Source: Deltaproteobacteria bacterium
GTDB lineage: Bacteria; Desulfobacterota; Syntrophobacteria; Syntrophobacterales; Syntrophobacteraceae
NCBI GenBank assembly: GCA_021813685.1
Contig: JAKAJS010000011.1
Coordinates: 1 to 36,548 of the forward strand
Reading direction: 5' to 3'
Length of the DNA: 36,548 nt
This document shows positions 1-17,513 of this stretch, piece by piece. The position numbers were made by a program, and so were the translations under genes. Below the pieces are notes generated by a model. The model saw only the letters and a program-made list of their open reading frames with translations, was not told where the DNA came from and did no database searches. Every line of letters starts with the position of its first letter. The stretch's first letter is position 1.

Positions 1-209
1 TCATCGACTACATAGTCGATGATAATCACGGCAAAGTCGGGCTGCCCGGTTATGGGACAAACCGTTGTGAATTCCGGGGCGCTCAGCCGGACCACGTAAT
101 CGGTGCCCGGGTTTGCGTTTGCAAATGTCTCCAGGACCGCCTCCTGAGGAGACCCGGCGGTTTCGACCTTTTTTCCCAACTGGGTGAGTTCATTTATTGC
201 TGCAGCCAT
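1..209 (-). CDS. queF: NADPH-dependent 7-cyano-7-deazaguanine reductase QueF (N-terminal part, cut by window edge)
   Basis: Reading leftward from ATG at 209-207 gives 69 codons running off the window. The frame contains [14 protein letters not shown] at about residues 45-58, the QueF signature with the catalytic cysteine that forms a thioimide with preQ0. QueF reduces the preQ0 nitrile to preQ1 with NADPH in queuosine tRNA modification, in the cytoplasm. It lies 17 bp downstream of queC on the same strand, so the two probably share a transcript; QueC makes the QueF substrate. The N-terminus before the motif is short, as in the monomodular (Bacillus-type) form. The rest of the active site is outside the window, so integrity cannot be judged. 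Confidence 0.9.
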
Positions 210-226
210 TTCTAAATCCGTTTCCG

Positions 227-925
227 TCACGGCGCATAGTGCGTCGGGTCTGGTATACCGGCTTCCGCAAAGCCTTTCCTTCGTAAAACGCAACTGTCGC
301 ATCTGCCGCACGCCCTGTCAACCGGGTCGGGGTCGTAGCAGGAATGGGTCATCGAAAAATCGACCCCGAGTTCCACACCCTTCCGTACGATCTGCGCCTT
401 GGTCATGTGGAGGAGCGGCGTGTGGATGCGCATGCGCAGGCGGCCTTCGACACATTCCCTGAGGGCGAGGTTGGCCATCTTTTCGAAGGATTCTATGTAT
501 TCCGGCCGGCAGTCGGGATAGCCCGAATAATCCAGGGCATTTACTCCAATGAAGATATCCGCCGCGTGAAGCGTTTCGGCCCAGGCGAGGGCAAGGGAGA
601 GAAACACCGTGTTTCTCGCCGGCACATAGGTGACAGGTATTTGCGTCTGCATCACCTCGGGGGGTACGTCTTTTGGCACCTCGATTTCGGAGGTGAGCGC
701 AGAGCCGCCGATCACGCCCAGGGGCACCTCCAGGACGAGGTGCGTCTTCACGCCGAGCGCTTCTGCGACCTTTCGGGCGGCTTTCAACTCCGCCCGGTGC
801 CGCTGCCCGTAGCTGAAGCTCAGCGCGAAGACCTCGAAGCCCTCCCGTTTTGCGATCGCAAGGCAGGTGGTCGAATCCAACCCGCCGGATACCAGCACGA
901 CCGCTTTCCTATTTTCTGCTGTCAT
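227..925 (-). CDS. queC: 7-cyano-7-deazaguanine synthase QueC
   Basis: ATP-dependent enzyme converting 7-carboxy-7-deazaguanine to preQ0 in queuosine biosynthesis. The 232-residue product has the PP-loop SGGLDST at residues 13-19 and a C-terminal zinc site with Cys196, Cys206, Cys209 and Cys212 (CGRCDSC). Length is normal for the family. Two starts are possible: GTG at 940, whose GTGA overlaps the stop of the upstream gene, and ATG at 925. ATG 925 is preferred because GAGGA lies 8-12 bases before it and the protein then begins close to the PP-loop as in known QueC. The overlap suggests translational coupling to the upstream nuclease-like gene; queF follows 17 bp downstream. Confidence 0.93.
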
Positions 926-12890: not shown

Positions 12891-14201
12891 TCAGTCCCCC
12901 TCCCCCAACCGAATGCGCACCGACTGCGCGTGGGCGGTGAGCCCTTCGAGTTCGGCAAGCCGTATGATGGAGCGCGCATCTCGCTGGAAGGCGGTGCGCG
13001 AATAGGCGATCACGCTGGTTTTTTTTAGGAAATCGTCTACTCCGAGCGCGGAGGCGAATCGGGCGGTGCCTGCTGTCGGGAGCACGTGGTTCGGGCCGGC
13101 GAAATAATCGCCGACAGGCTCCGGGGTATGTTCGCCGATAAAGACCGCTCCGGCGTTTTCTACTTTTCCCAGCCAGGAAAAAGGCTCTTCGAGGTGCAGT
13201 TCGAGATGTTCGGGGGCTATGCGGTTGGCAAGCTCGAAGGCCGCATCCAGTTCGCGAACCACGAAAACAGCCCCGTAGCTCTCGATCGAGGCCGACGCCG
13301 TCTCGGCCCTGGGAAGGGCGGCGAGCTGCCTCGACACCTCCGAGGCGATATCGCCCGCGAGGTTTTCTTCGGTGGTGATGCACACCGAACTAGCCATGGC
13401 ATCGTGCTCGGCCTGACTCAGCAGATCGGCGGCAATATAGTCGGCCCGGGCGCTCGAGTCGGCAAGCACCAGGATTTCACTGGGCCCGGCGATCATGTCG
13501 ATACCCACCTCGCCGGCAAGAAGCTTTTTGGCGAGCGCTACGAAGATATTTCCGGGACCGGCGATCACATCGACCGAGCGGATCGACTCGGTGCCGCAGG
13601 CAAGGGCAGCAATCCCCCATGCGCTACCGGCCCTGTAGATCCGGCCGACTCCCACCTCGCGCGCTGCGGCGAGAAGAAAGGGATTGATGCTTCCGTCTTT
13701 TCTGGGAGGCGTTATGAGCGCTATGTCCTGCACGCCGGCAAGACGAGCGGGTATGACGTTCATGAGCACCGAGGAGATGAGGGGCGTTTCCCCTCCCCGG
13801 CCGCCCGGGGTATAGACTCCCGCAGCCCGAACCGGCCTCACGATCTGGCCGAGAAACGTGCCGTCGGGGTCGGTCGAAAAATGCGAGTAGCGCAACTGCC
13901 GTTTGTGGAATTCTTCAATATTGCGGATGGCCGCCCGGATAATGGACAAAAAATCCGAATCCACCTCGCGGCATGCGGCCGCCGTTTCTTCCTCGGAGAC
14001 CCTGAGGCGCCCCTCTTCCAGCTCGGGGGCGTCGAACCGGCGCACGTACCGCAGCACCGCGGCGTCGCCTTCCGCCTTTACCGCCCGAATTATTTCGAGC
14101 ACCTTCGCTTCGAGTTCCGGGTCGGCCCCGGGCCTGCGTTGCGCGATCTCCGCAATCTTTTGCTCCGCCCTCTCAGAGGGATATCTTATGATGTCGATCA
14201 T
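12891..14201 (-). CDS. hisD: Histidinol dehydrogenase
   Basis: Catalyses the last two steps of histidine synthesis, NAD-dependent oxidation of histidinol to histidine, in the cytoplasm. The 436-residue product keeps the zinc ligands expected from the E. coli enzyme: Gln263 and His266 in SQAEHD, Asp365 in VGDY, and His424 near the C-terminus. The catalytic Glu331-His332 pair is in APEHLE. The AGPSEILVLAD signature is at about 238-248. The ATG overlaps the rlpA stop as ATGA, so translation is probably coupled. No other his gene except hisS (a tRNA ligase, upstream in the same run) is in the window. Confidence 0.96.
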   Translation of the reverse strand: MIDIIRYPSERAEQKIAEIAQRRPGADPELEAKVLEIIRAVKAEGDAAVLRYVRRFDAPELEEGRLRVSEEETAAACREVDSDFLSIIRAAIRNIEEFHKRQLRYSHFSTDPDGTFLGQIVRPVRAAGVYTPGGRGGETPLISSVLMNVIPARLAGVQDIALITPPRKDGSINPFLLAAAREVGVGRIYRAGSAWGIAALACGTESIRSVDVIAGPGNIFVALAKKLLAGEVGIDMIAGPSEILVLADSSARADYIAADLLSQAEHDAMASSVCITTEENLAGDIASEVSRQLAALPRAETASASIESYGAVFVVRELDAAFELANRIAPEHLELHLEEPFSWLGKVENAGAVFIGEHTPEPVGDYFAGPNHVLPTAGTARFASALGVDDFLKKTSVIAYSRTAFQRDARSIIRLAELEGLTAHAQSVRIRLGEGD

Positions 14202-15145
14202 TTGTTTTGTCCGTCAACGGCTATTACGAAGGCGCCCGGAAAACCGCCGGCCCTGTACCGTTGGGCCTGCTCCTTCGCAACGACCAGATCCTTGTATGCA
14301 CCCACCTGCACCCTGTACCAATAACCCGGTTTATCCGGAATATAACCCGGAATGACTCGGCATTCCTGCCTGCTCATCTTCTGCTGCAAACGGTACGCAT
14401 TGTTCTCGTTTTGGAAGGCGCCGATCTGCACGGCGAATTGGCCGTACCGGAACGAAGGCACCGGAGCAGGCTTCCAGTAGGTGGAATTGCCCACGACCTG
14501 CGGGGTCGCCCCCTGGACGGCCTGCACTTCCACTCTCGCCAGTCCTTTCCCGTAGCACCCCAGAGTCTGGGCGCACCGGGCCGAAAGATCTATGATCCTG
14601 CCGGCCACAAACGGCCCGCGGTCCGTGATCTTGGCCACGACCGTTCTGCCGTTTTCCAGGTTCGTCACTTTGACGTAGGTCCCGAGAGGAAGCGTTTTGT
14701 GCGCCGCCGTATACGCCCACATATTGTAGATCTGGCCGCACGCCGTCGGCTTGCCGTTGAAACCGGGGCCGTACCAGCTCGCCAGACCCTCCTGCTCGAA
14801 CCCCCTGGCGCTGGAAAGAGGATAATACCAGATGCCGTTCACTTCATAAGGTCTTTGAGAACTGAGGCCGTGGTAAGCACCCGGAGCAGGCGGGGCATAG
14901 TTATGGGTCGCGCACGCCGCCAGCACAAAAGAAAGGCAGACGAGGGCCAGAAGCCGGAGGGGCCGAAGCGAGAAGCGGGAAGCGGGAAGCGCAAAAGCGG
15001 AAGCGGGAAGCGAGAAGCGGGAAGCGGGAAGAAGAGCAGATCTTTCCGCCTTTACGCGGGAAACGGGAAGCGGGAAGGAGAACTTCCTGCACCGAGGTTT
15101 GGTTCGTTTTGCAACCGCCTTTAAGGCGGGATCAAGCCCTATCAA
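14198..15145 (-). CDS. rlpA: RlpA-like lipoprotein: double-psi beta-barrel plus SPOR domain, repeat-altered N-terminus
   Basis: RlpA is an outer-membrane lipoprotein; in Pseudomonas it is a lytic transglycosylase acting on denuded septal glycan. Here a hydrophobic stretch ends in a lipobox with Cys78 (FVLAAC), then comes a barrel domain with ASWYGPGFNGK, His149 (AAHKTLPLGT) and Asp175 (ITDRGPF), which match the catalytic residues, and a C-terminal SPOR domain (about 234-312) for septal targeting. The odd part is the first 60 residues: they are encoded by degenerate GGAAGCG heptamers and read LPASRFSLPAS repeatedly. No ATG or GTG exists before the lipobox; the only usable start seen is TTG at 15145, inside the neighbouring gene. 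The original signal-peptide start was probably replaced by repeat DNA. Confidence 0.85.
   Translation of the reverse strand: MIGLDPALKAVAKRTKPRCRKFSFPLPVSRVKAERSALLPASRFSLPASAFALPASRFSLRPLRLLALVCLSFVLAACATHNYAPPAPGAYHGLSSQRPYEVNGIWYYPLSSARGFEQEGLASWYGPGFNGKPTACGQIYNMWAYTAAHKTLPLGTYVKVTNLENGRTVVAKITDRGPFVAGRIIDLSARCAQTLGCYGKGLARVEVQAVQGATPQVVGNSTYWKPAPVPSFRYGQFAVQIGAFQNENNAYRLQQKMSRQECRVIPGYIPDKPGYWYRVQVGAYKDLVVAKEQAQRYRAGGFPGAFVIAVDGQNK
14964..15079. repeat. Left array of degenerate GGAAGCG heptamers (plus-strand orientation)
   Basis: The plus strand reads as many imperfect copies of GGAAGCG, with AGAAGCG as the main variant, interrupted near 15034-15055. It contains one half (15000-15033) of a perfect 34-bp inverted repeat whose partner is at 15593-15626. 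The array lies within the 5' coding end of rlpA and encodes the LPASRFSLPAS-like peptide there. Confidence 0.85.
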
Positions 15146-15518
15146 TGTGCCTACCCGCTTTCGACTGTCGAATTTGTCTGATATATGCAGCCAATTGACG
15201 ATTTATCACATCCAGCTCTTCGTGCAGGTCGCCCGTATCTCCATACCCCAAGTCCTGAGCAAGGATGCAGTAGTATCTGCATTCCTCAAGAGAACCCTCC
15301 GCCACATTGAGAAACCTTGCCTTATCGGCGGTCGTATATTTCCGAAAGCCTTCAGCAATGTTTGCAGGGATGGAAACTGCAGCCCGGCGCCACTGGCTGG
15401 TAAGCCCGAAGCGCTCGTGGTCGGGGAAAGTCCCGGTCAGCCGATATACTTTCAATACCCAGGCGTGGGAATTTTTCCATACTTCCAGTTCGGTGAATGA
15501 TCTTGCAGCGGTTCGCAT
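15132..15518 (-). CDS. Four-helix-bundle protein (S23/IVP family)
   Basis: The 128-residue product matches the small four-helix-bundle family first seen in intervening sequences of 23S rRNA: SFTELEVWK at the N-terminus, SQWRRAAVSIPANIAEG (about 43-59), ARFLNVAEGSLEE, and LGYGDTGDL. The family includes Avd, the accessory protein of diversity-generating retroelements, but its general role is unknown; nucleic-acid binding is likely. ATG 15518 is preferred over the in-frame TTG at 15545 because family members begin just before SFxxLEVWK. The gene lies between two inverted heptamer arrays and overlaps the apparent TTG start of rlpA by 14 bases. No 23S rRNA or reverse transcriptase is nearby. Confidence 0.88.
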   Translation of the reverse strand: MRTAARSFTELEVWKNSHAWVLKVYRLTGTFPDHERFGLTSQWRRAAVSIPANIAEGFRKYTTADKARFLNVAEGSLEECRYYCILAQDLGYGDTGDLHEELDVINRQLAAYIRQIRQSKAGRHIDRA

Positions 15519-15561
15519 CAGCCCCCCAACTTCGGCGCCACGCAAGAGAGACCAGCCTTTC

Positions 15562-15668
15562 TTCCTGCTTCCCGCTTCTGCGGTTTAAGTTTTTCTTCCC
15601 GCTTCCCGCTTCTCGCTTCCCGCTTCGGTTCCTATCCTTCCCGCTTCCCGCTTCCCGCTTCTTGCTTC
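15562..15668. repeat. Right array of degenerate heptamers (CGCTTCC on the plus strand, inverted to the left array)
   Basis: The plus strand carries repeated CTTCCCG/CTTCTCG units, the reverse complement of the left array. Positions 15593-15626 are the perfect partner of 15000-15033. The array fills the gap between the four-helix-bundle gene and the 3' end of the Re-citrate-synthase-like gene, stopping about 10 bases before that gene's stop codon. Confidence 0.85.
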
Positions 15669-15677
15669 CGCCCTCTC

Positions 15678-17513
15678 TCAGCTGCCGGCTTCGCCCTTCT
15701 TTTCCATCTTGGCAAGATCTTCGAACCGGATGTCTATGCCGAGAATTCCCGCGATCTCGTCCCCGTCATCGCGTATCGGCGCTGAAACCGTTATGCACAA
15801 GGCCCCCGTGTAGCGCGAGGTGTAAAAGTCGGTCACATGCACCTTGCCGTCTTTCATCGGTTCGATGAACCACGGGCGGTCGGAGAGGTCCTCGCCGACG
15901 CGGGCGTCGCGGTACTTGGACTTATCTGCTATGTGCGTAATATTATGGGTTATTTTACGTCCCTGCGCATCGGTGACGTAAATATACTGTATAAAGGGGT
16001 TGAGTTCCAGAAGAGTTTGGAGCAGCGGTTCCTGGCGCTCAGGATCGAGGCTTCTCATCATCTCGGATTCGACCACCTCCTCCACCAGGTGAGCGGCAAG
16101 CAGATAGGCGCGCTGCTTGAGCATGTCGAACTCGGAGATGAAATACTCGGGCAAATACCTTCTGGCCCAGCGTTCCAGCTCTTCGCTGGAGATCGAAGTA
16201 TTTCTCCCCTTTTCGTACTCGTTCATCACCTGTTTGAAAATCTTCATGAGGCCCGGATGCCTCTTGTCCAGGCGGCGTTCTCCCTCGAGTTTCAGACGAT
16301 GGTTCACCCAGTAGGCAACGCCCGCAATGCCCGACTTGTCGGTTATCGTGATGCTGACCGGTCTTTTGAGCAATAGTTTCGTATCGAAGATGTTGTAGAT
16401 TTCCTCGTTCTTTACGAGCCCGTCGGCGTGAATGCCTGCGCTTGTGGCATTGAAATCCTCGCCGGCAAACGGGTAATTGGCCGGAACCGTATAGCCCAGT
16501 TCGGCCTGGAAATATTCGACAATGTCGGTAACGGCGGTGGTGTCCACTCCGTTGGGGGTGCCTTTGAGGCCGATGTACTCGAAGATGAGCCCTTCGACGG
16601 GCGCATTGCCCGTGCGCTCGCCAAAGCCCAGAAGAGTCCCGTTTGCCCCGGCACAGCCGTAGAGCCAGGCAGTGGCGGCATTTACCAGCACCTTGTGGAA
16701 ATCGTTGTGGCCGTGCCACTCGAGCAGCCGCCCTGGGACACCGGCGTCTTCTATAAAGGCCCGCACAAGATTGGGAACGCTTCTCGGCAATGCGGCCCCC
16801 GGATACGGGATGCCGAATCCGAGCGTATCGCAGAGCCGAATCTTTATGTCTATGCCGCTTTCTTCCCGCAACCGCATCAGTTCGATGGCAAACGGGATGC
16901 AGAAGCCGTAGATGTCTGCGCGGGTAATGTCTTCGAGGTGGCACCTCGGGGCGATCCCCTTATCCAGGGCGGTGCGCACGATTTTGAGGTACTTTTCGAG
17001 GGCTGCCTTCCGGTTCGACTGCAGTTTCAGAAAAATATGATAATCGGAGGCCGAAGTGAGGATGCCGGTTTCTTTCAAACCGAGTTTTACCACTAGGTCC
17101 AGGTCTTCTTCGACGGCCCGGATCCACCCGGTTATCTGCGGATACTCGTATCCTTTGGAAAGACACGCATCCAGCGCCTCCCGGTCTTTATCGGTGTAGA
17201 GGAAAAACTCCGACTGGCGAATGACTCCGTTGGGCCCCGAGAGGCGGTGCATCAAGTCGAAAATCGACGCGATCTGGGCCACGGTATAGGGAGGCCGGGC
17301 CTGCTGGCCGTCTCGAAAGGTCGTATCGGTGATGAAAAATTCCTCTGCGGGGTCTATGGCCCGGAGCTTGTGGTCGAAATCGATTTTGGGCACCTCGGAG
17401 TAGGGGAAAATATCCCGCATCAGGTTGGGATCATCGAGGTCTTCGACCCTGCAGCGCTGAAGATCCGTATTCACATGGTCCAGCACCCGTTTCCCGGGGT
17501 TCCAACGAGCCAT
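15678..17513 (-). CDS. DRE-TIM metallolyase, probable Re-citrate synthase, with C-terminal Cache/PDC-like domain
   Basis: Residues 1-410 form a DRE-TIM acyl-CoA condensing enzyme: catalytic TDTTFRDGQQARPPYT (62-77), metal-binding HGHND (267-271), ERTGN (299-303) and AGIHADG (359-365). The wording of these motifs resembles clostridial Re-citrate synthase more than 2-isopropylmalate or homocitrate synthase, so condensation of acetyl-CoA with oxaloacetate is likely; homocitrate synthesis remains possible. Residues about 500-605 look like a PDC/Cache sensor fold (NPFIQYIYVTDAQGR, DRPWFIEPMKDG, SAPIRDD, GILGIDI). No membrane segment or signal peptide is present, so the sensor-like part is cytoplasmic and may sense a carboxylate. 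The ATG is 16 bases after the aspS stop, with AGGAAAGG upstream. Confidence 0.75.
   Translation of the reverse strand: MARWNPGKRVLDHVNTDLQRCRVEDLDDPNLMRDIFPYSEVPKIDFDHKLRAIDPAEEFFITDTTFRDGQQARPPYTVAQIASIFDLMHRLSGPNGVIRQSEFFLYTDKDREALDACLSKGYEYPQITGWIRAVEEDLDLVVKLGLKETGILTSASDYHIFLKLQSNRKAALEKYLKIVRTALDKGIAPRCHLEDITRADIYGFCIPFAIELMRLREESGIDIKIRLCDTLGFGIPYPGAALPRSVPNLVRAFIEDAGVPGRLLEWHGHNDFHKVLVNAATAWLYGCAGANGTLLGFGERTGNAPVEGLIFEYIGLKGTPNGVDTTAVTDIVEYFQAELGYTVPANYPFAGEDFNATSAGIHADGLVKNEEIYNIFDTKLLLKRPVSITITDKSGIAGVAYWVNHRLKLEGERRLDKRHPGLMKIFKQVMNEYEKGRNTSISSEELERWARRYLPEYFISEFDMLKQRAYLLAAHLVEEVVESEMMRSLDPERQEPLLQTLLELNPFIQYIYVTDAQGRKITHNITHIADKSKYRDARVGEDLSDRPWFIEPMKDGKVHVTDFYTSRYTGALCITVSAPIRDDGDEIAGILGIDIRFEDLAKMEKKGEAGS

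What the first reader, a model, noticed from the sequence alone, without database searches (positions are those of the whole stretch)
14964..15668. Four-helix-bundle gene bracketed by inverted arrays of a GGAAGCG heptamer: possible mobile cassette
On the plus strand the left array (14964-15079) is built of GGAAGCG/AGAAGCG units and the right array (15562-15668) of their reverse complement. They contain a perfect 34-bp inverted repeat (15000-15033 with 15593-15626). Between them lies a single S23/IVP-family four-helix-bundle gene. A transcript of this unit would fold into a long stem with the gene in the loop, much like the S23-encoding intervening sequences of 23S rRNA, but here it stands in an ordinary operon between a citrate-synthase-like gene and rlpA. 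This could be a non-rRNA IVS-like mobile element, or a cassette whose small protein binds the repeat stem. I know of no described element of this kind.
Basis: partly seen in the sequence, partly recalled or inferred. Interest (0 to 1): 0.8.

Follow-up and report, generated by a model that had tools for sequence, protein, structure and literature searches.

The report
Mobile gene flanked by heptamer arrays
A small gene, known before mainly as a passenger inside bacterial ribosomal RNA genes, turns out to be carried across bacteria and at least one archaeon by a compact, apparently mobile DNA element whose two ends are mirror-image arrays of 7- or 8-letter repeats that differ from copy to copy and that can scatter through a genome without the gene.

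Summary
The gene is PF05635/TIGR02436 (23S-rRNA IVP, four-helix bundle). Across more than 200 IVP loci in bacteria and one archaeon, most are flanked by inverted tandem arrays of period 7, sometimes 8. The unit differs between loci but matches between the two arms: 93 two-sided loci give similarity 0.84 versus 0.53 in mismatched pairs. Inverted repeats score >=28 at 74% of IVP loci and at 0 of 453 control sites. Similar IVPs carry similar units at unrelated sites. In orthologues whose unit has changed, both arms changed together. Empty sites lack any array: Pseudomonas cysD-cysN is empty in 23 of 30 genomes and holds a ~500-nt element in 7. The window's GGAAGCG unit is abundant as gene-less arrays only in two genomes that carry IVPs of this unit type (207 and 158 hits; 0-7 in nine other genus members). 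Likewise GGGAATC, the unexplained heptamer of Xanthomonas, flanks XCC0516-type IVPs. Best reading: an IVS-like mobile element with gene-less derivatives; 23S rRNA IVSs are a special case. How it moves, and whether IVP binds the repeats, is untested.

The parts
15132..15545 (-). IVP/S23-family four-helix-bundle gene (137 aa from TTG at 15545; 128 aa from the likelier ATG at 15518)
   Evidence: PF05635 1.6e-33, TIGR02436 2.4e-33; PDB relative 2gsc, five chains
15561..15669 (-). upstream (5') heptamer array, GGAAGCG on the coding strand, starting within a few bases of the stop codon of the upstream gene
   Evidence: TRF period 7, inverted-repeat arm, distance to stop codon
14964..15079 (-). downstream (3') heptamer array, reverse complement of the upstream one
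   Evidence: TRF period 7, inverted-repeat arm
15000..15033 (.). arm of the perfect 34-nt inverted repeat, pairing with 15593-15626
   Evidence: sequence; inside the 69-nt, 88% pair
15593..15626 (.). other arm of the perfect 34-nt inverted repeat
   Evidence: sequence
15678..17513 (-). upstream neighbour: HMGL-like synthase with C-terminal Cache/PDC domain; marks one border of the insertion site
   Evidence: found in all 11 genus genomes
14198..15145 (-). downstream neighbour rlpA (lytic transglycosylase family, SPOR domain); its longest ORF runs through the downstream array

Best explanation
The window holds an intact member of a widespread class of small mobile elements, here called IVP elements. 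Each is about 0.45-0.8 kb: one gene for an S23/IVP four-helix-bundle protein between two inverted arrays of a 7-nt (sometimes 8-nt) unit that is specific to the element's lineage. Elements sit in intergenic gaps, typically starting at the stop codon of the preceding gene. Transcribed by read-through, the RNA forms a long hairpin with the gene in the loop, as in the IVSs of 23S rRNA, which belong to the same class. The cassette moves with its arrays, and gene-less derivatives (inverted array pairs with a short spacer, or solo arrays) spread and persist in the same genome, as REPINs do beside a RAYT gene. The arms are kept complementary by exchange between them and/or by selection for pairing. 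SHOWN by sequence comparison: the arrays, their pairing, lineage specificity, concerted change, presence/absence at sites, gene-less copies, co-occurrence with cognate IVPs. INFERRED: mobility as the cause; that the pentameric IVP recognises its repeat RNA or DNA and promotes spread in cis and trans; RNase III processing. UNKNOWN: the enzyme that joins the element into DNA.
For: Generality: 58 of 75 IVP loci in the phylum and 58 of 78 loci from many phyla exceed 95% of mismatched flank pairs; autocorrelation peaks at lags 7/14/21 in both flanks but not in the gene; 46% versus 0% two-sided periodicity against controls; units agree between arms 0.84 versus 0.53, identical 35/93 versus 0.2%. Lineage specificity: unit similarity 0.83 at >=70% protein identity, 0.52 at <50%. 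Cassette: related IVPs share gene and arrays but not flanks, e.g. L094/L097, L072/L066, L031 versus L052 and L085. Concerted change of both arms at orthologous sites; some ordered copying of unit variants between arms. Empty sites without any array: Pseudomonas cysD-cysN; gene-less GGAAGCG element in the window's genome, absent from G001, G009, G010 and G003, with a different unit in G007. Window site: intact in G000, decayed in G007, remnants in G001 and G010, no IVP in the others. Dispersal follows the cognate IVP. Purifying selection on IVP, dN/dS 0.04-0.12. Coxiella's IVS has GACAGAT heptamers just upstream of the S23 ORF and a 28-bp terminal stem cleaved by RNase III (PMC4990558).
Against: No integration or excision enzyme is visible in the element and no target-site duplication was seen at the Pseudomonas site, so transposition is inferred. 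Several genomes hold many arrays but no XCC0516-type IVP (G572, G563, G613). About a fifth of IVP loci show no clear array on either side. There is no orientation bias beyond ordinary operon structure (81% versus 75%), which a strictly RNA-level insertion might predict. Coxiella S23p seems not to be translated (PMC4990558). The Pseudomonas copies may be vertically inherited, and loss rather than gain is possible at some sites. Most genomes are draft MAGs in which arrays break contigs.
Confidence: 0.75

Rival explanations
1. Landing pads: heptamer arrays arise by slippage, and IVP genes insert into or between pre-existing arrays.
For: Arrays without the gene outnumber arrays with it in G000.
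Against: Empty sites show no array at all (23 of 30 Pseudomonas; gap of L142). A pre-existing direct array would give direct, not inverted, arms. The unit tracks the protein lineage at unrelated sites.
Confidence: 0.07
2. By-product: the IVP gene moves or is inherited by other means, its flanks began as short inverted repeats, and the arrays are neutral slippage products kept complementary by inter-arm template switching, with no role for the protein.
For: Array length differs by whole units between related plasmid loci (L235 versus L243, 14 nt) and between Coxiella strains (PMC4990558). Some ordered copying between arms.
Against: Does not explain the fixed period of 7/8 across phyla, the consistent G-rich upstream strand (138 of 153), or the dispersal of cognate arrays with cognate IVPs.
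Confidence: 0.15
3. RNA-level element (a sub-case of the best explanation that names the mechanism): the hairpin RNA bound by pentameric IVP is reverse-transcribed and reinserted by a host reverse transcriptase in trans, IVP playing an Avd-like role.
For: IVP is homologous to Avd, the essential accessory factor of diversity-generating retroelements (PMC10053308). The transcript folds into a very long stem.
Against: No RT among the tested neighbours. No orientation bias.
Confidence: 0.2
4. Host-beneficial gene: IVP is a domesticated regulator and the arrays are its mRNA-binding sites, spread by selection rather than selfishly.
For: Purifying selection (dN/dS 0.04-0.12). IVP genes found inside cas operons.
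Against: Presence/absence in a minority of close relatives, decayed copies, many unrelated host genes, 111 distinct units in 130 loci.
Confidence: 0.1

Closest known systems
IVS of 23S rRNA encoding S23/IVP (Coxiella, Leptospira)
   Same: Same protein family; terminal inverted repeats forming a long stem with the ORF in the loop; Coxiella's IVS has tandem GACAGAT heptamers just upstream of the ORF, varying in copy number between strains (PMC4990558).
   Different: Not in rRNA; sits between protein-coding genes; long arrays on both sides; gene-less copies dispersed in the genome.
RAYT transposase and REPIN repeats
   Same: One gene copy with inverted flanking repeats plus many gene-less, paired copies whose sequence follows the gene's lineage (from general knowledge of RAYTs).
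   Different: Protein is a four-helix bundle, not a Y1 tyrosine transposase; repeats are tandem 7- or 8-mers, not palindromic REPs.
GGGAATC heptamer repeats of Xanthomonas and heptamer STRRs of cyanobacteria
   Same: Intergenic period-7 arrays, 70 convergent pairs in X. campestris, near the end of the preceding ORF (PMC4692102). Here the same unit flanks XCC0516-type IVPs.
   Different: Described as G-quadruplex or simple sequence repeats; not linked to an IVP gene in the papers found.
TAACTGA heptamer repeats of Beggiatoaceae, cyanobacteria and Bacteroidetes
   Same: Intergenic heptamer direct repeats with patchy distribution across distant lineages (PMC4679880).
   Different: Mostly short direct repeats upstream of start codons; no IVP gene mentioned; not tested here.
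Avd of diversity-generating retroelements
   Same: Homologous pentameric four-helix-bundle fold.
   Different: No RT found beside the window gene; TR/VR not searched.
MITEs / classical IS elements
   Same: Gene-less derivatives with inverted termini.
   Different: Termini are tandem arrays particular to each lineage; no transposase; no clear target-site duplication.

Membership tests
rRNA IVS (S23-encoding) | encodes a PF05635/S23 protein | tested here: met
rRNA IVS (S23-encoding) | complementary ends forming a long stem | tested here: met
rRNA IVS (S23-encoding) | located inside an rRNA gene | tested here: not met
   lies between HMGL-like gene and rlpA; no Rfam match in 14900-15760
rRNA IVS (S23-encoding) | excised by RNase III without religation | not testable with these tools
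   needs RNA end mapping or in vitro digestion
RAYT/REPIN | Y1 HUH (IS200-like) transposase | tested here: not met
   protein is PF05635 only
RAYT/REPIN | dispersed gene-less paired repeats matching those beside the gene | tested here: met
Diversity-generating retroelement (Avd) | reverse transcriptase nearby | tested here: not met
   no RT among the five flanking genes tested
Diversity-generating retroelement (Avd) | template and variable repeats (TR/VR) | not tested
   no search made
Insertion sequence / MITE | transposase gene | tested here: not met
   the only gene between the arrays is PF05635
Insertion sequence / MITE | target-site duplication | tested here: inconclusive
   filled versus empty cysD-cysN junctions show none by eye; spacers too diverged to be sure
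Intergenic heptamer SSR (GGGAATC type) | period-7 tandem arrays dispersed in the genome | tested here: met

The most novel reading that the evidence does not exclude
A new class of prokaryotic mobile element: a pentameric four-helix-bundle protein recognises a 7/8-nt repeat array of its own lineage and mobilises both its own cassette and gene-less arrays in trans. 23S rRNA IVSs and many of the unexplained heptameric simple repeats of bacteria (cyanobacterial STRRs, GGGAATC of Xanthomonas) are its products.
Probability: 0.45. Interest if true: 0.93.

Novelty: new variant of a known kind. Interest (0 to 1): 0.85.

Why it matters
It joins two old puzzles: what S23/IVP genes, known since 1993 from fragmented 23S rRNA, are for, and why heptameric simple repeats are over-represented in many bacterial genomes. 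It predicts, for any heptamer-rich genome, a cognate IVP gene now or in the recent past, and gives a concrete protein-repeat pair to test. It also suggests why IVP genes keep turning up as apparent partners of CRISPR-cas and DGR loci: they insert in many operons. The arrays break draft assemblies (several contigs of this genome end inside one), so the class has probably been under-seen.

Tried and rejected
(1) Stop codons in all three frames as the reason for period 7/8: not enriched on the coding strand (55 of 119 units versus 49.5 +/- 4.5 shuffled); the window's unit has none. (2) Orientation bias indicating RNA-level insertion: 81% same-strand upstream neighbour versus 75% in control gene pairs, not convincing. 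(3) A conserved core with variable positions inside the unit, as for a ring protein such as TRAP: only a weak signal (789 variable columns versus 807 +/- 9); not claimed. (4) Rfam: no match in 14900-15760. (5) First genome-contig query failed because the alignment was too diverse, repeated with A2. (7) Paper searches found no description of the link between IVP genes and heptamer arrays; the library holds open-licence papers only.

Full report
WHAT IS THERE. The arrays, their inversion and the 34-nt perfect repeat are as described. The gene between them is a clear PF05635/TIGR02436 member, related to XCC0516 of Xanthomonas campestris, whose crystal structure 2gsc holds five chains (the assembly of five four-helix bundles is named in the title of Lin et al. 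2006, cited in PMC3936711). The window is contig C29 of a 5.06-Mb, 285-contig genome. Folded as RNA, the element gives a long stem with the gene in the loop, z = -8.5 against shuffles.

THE PATTERN IS GENERAL. Other IVP genes of the same genome do not carry GGAAGCG, but two of them carry arrays of other heptamers: TCAGTGA/CACTGCT in L032, AATTAAG/ATTCTTA in L033. I therefore compared upstream with downstream flanks for IVP loci found by profile search in 60 related genomes. Median local-alignment score of the upstream flank against the reverse complement of the downstream flank was 39, against 17 for mismatched pairs; 58 of 75 exceeded 95% of the mismatched pairs. For loci from many phyla (Proteobacteria, Bacteroidota, Verrucomicrobia, Firmicutes, Planctomycetes, Acidobacteria, Chloroflexi, CPR, one Methanophagales archaeon) the figures were 37, 17 and 58 of 78. 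Autocorrelation of both flanks peaks at lags 7, 14 and 21 and weakly at 8; the gene itself has none. Strong periods agree between sides: 51 loci (7,7), 12 (8,8), three mixed 7/8. Against 453 control positions in the same loci, two-sided periodicity was 46% versus 0%, and an inverted repeat scoring >=28 was 74% versus 0%. Later sets from Pseudoalteromonas, Gammaproteobacteria, cyanobacterial and Riemerella plasmids (downstream arm often short) and the family of G547 look the same.

THE UNIT IS A LINEAGE MARK. 111 distinct units occurred in 130 loci. Where both arms have an array (93 loci), the unit of one arm matches the reverse complement of the other at 0.84 versus 0.53 in mismatched pairs; identical in 35 of 93 versus 0.2%. 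On the coding strand the upstream arm is G-rich in 138 of 153 loci. Unit similarity between loci follows IVP protein identity: 0.83 at >=70% identity, falling to the background of 0.52 below 50%.

IT BEHAVES AS A CASSETTE. Many IVP pairs at >=70% identity share only the gene and arrays, with unrelated flanks: L094/L097 are 94% identical over -63..415 and unrelated outside; L072/L066 and L031 versus L052 or L085 behave alike. At orthologous sites where the unit has changed, both arms show the new unit: L082 GTGAATG versus L075 GTGACTC; L033 AATTAAG versus L090 AATTAGG; L062 GTAGCGG versus L077 GGGAGCG. In 16 of 80 loci, the window's among them, the order of unit variants is mirrored between arms beyond shuffles, which suggests copying between arms. 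Array length changes by whole units: two related plasmid loci differ by exactly 14 nt (L235/L243).

FILLED AND EMPTY SITES. Pseudomonas cysD-cysN: 23 of 30 genomes have only 13-18 nt in the measured gap between the two genes; 7 carry an insert (gap 459-503 nt) that begins at the cysD stop codon with AAGCTTC-type heptamers and ends a few bases before the cysN ATG with their reverse complement. The IVP there evolves under purifying selection (dN/dS 0.04-0.12; some dS values saturated). At the window's own site, HMGL-like gene to rlpA, 10 of 11 genus genomes keep the two genes together on one contig; the IVP is intact in G000, broken and duplicated in G007, reduced to short remnants in G001 and G010, and absent from the rest, where G003 has a gene-less pair of inverted GTGAGCA-type arrays. 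A gene-less GGAAGCG element of G000 (L142) is missing from the orthologous gap in G001, G009, G010 and G003, while G007 has an octamer array (TGAATGGG) exactly there, the unit type of an IVP resident in G007 (L081). Among 78 loci with a co-directional upstream gene the array starts at the stop codon (median -1 nt, 56% within 14 nt); purifying selection against insertion in genes would by itself favour this.

GENE-LESS COPIES FOLLOW THE GENE. In G000 the double unit GGAAGCGGGAAGCG occurs 207 times, in its relative G007, which holds IVPs of the same unit type, 158 times; in the nine other genus members 0-7 times; in G036 all four hits lie at its own IVP. Several arrays in G000 form gene-less inverted pairs with a short spacer (L141, L142, L144), others are solo. 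The same was seen independently in the family of G547, probably Xanthomonadaceae (inference: IVPs 58-68% identical to XCC0516). XCC0516-like IVPs there are flanked by inverted GGGAATC/GGGATTC arrays, and the dispersed double unit is present in 10 of 12 genomes with such an IVP against 19 of 66 others (Fisher p = 6e-4; counts p = 2e-5; not corrected for relatedness). GGGAATC is the repeat reported at 186 places in X. campestris, 70 times as convergent pairs, on average 28 nt from the preceding ORF, without an explanation (PMC4692102). Genomes with arrays but no such IVP exist (G572, G563, G613), expected if the gene is lost more readily than the arrays, but also a point against a strict rule.

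HOW IT PROBABLY WORKS. Shown: a compact cassette with lineage-specific inverted arrays, present or absent at sites, with gene-less relatives. Inferred: it is mobile; the IVP recognises its repeat, as RNA stem or as DNA, and promotes spread in cis and trans; read-through transcripts are cut in the stem by RNase III as for the Coxiella IVS (PMC4990558). Unknown: the joining enzyme. Avd homology (PMC10053308) makes an RNA intermediate with a borrowed reverse transcriptase possible, but the lack of orientation bias gives it no support.

KNOWN OR NEW. The closest relative is the S23-encoding IVS of 23S rRNA; Coxiella's has GACAGAT heptamers immediately upstream of the ORF. The window's element fails the defining rRNA location, so it is not an rRNA IVS, but it is built like one, and the rRNA form looks like a special case of the wider class. 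I found no paper that links IVP genes to heptamer arrays; the search covered open-licence papers only.

Noticed in passing
window 15678-17513 (-): HMGL-like (homocitrate/2-isopropylmalate synthase family) enzyme fused to a C-terminal Cache/PDC sensor domain, conserved over its length in most of the genus. An enzyme with a ligand-sensing domain of chemoreceptors is unusual.
   Followed up: no
window 14198-15145 (-): The longest rlpA ORF starts at a TTG inside the 3' end of the IVP gene and reads through the downstream array in frame into the lipoprotein signal sequence; rlpA may have lost its own start codon to the element.
   Followed up: partly
L238 (Picosynechococcus plasmid) and L240 (Pseudanabaena plasmid): IVP elements sit inside CRISPR-cas operons (between cas10 and a cmr3-type gene; between cas6 and cas4), which may explain reports of IVP as a CRISPR-linked gene.
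   Followed up: partly
genome G058: One genome of the phylum has 14 or more mostly broken IVP matches with internal stops, as after a burst of copies that decayed.
   Followed up: no
L112 and L113 (G008, G004), HMGL-rlpA gap: Gene-less inverted repeats of the ACCGCAGAGAACGCGGAGA type fill the same gap; this sequence type seems common in bacterial genomes (from memory) and may belong to the same class with period 8/9.
   Followed up: no
L036, L086, L208, L165: A few IVP loci carry arrays of the same unit in direct rather than inverted orientation.
   Followed up: no
Pseudoalteromonas G061, G168, G171: Several IVP copies lie within 10-30 kb of each other, suggesting a preferred variable region.
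   Followed up: no
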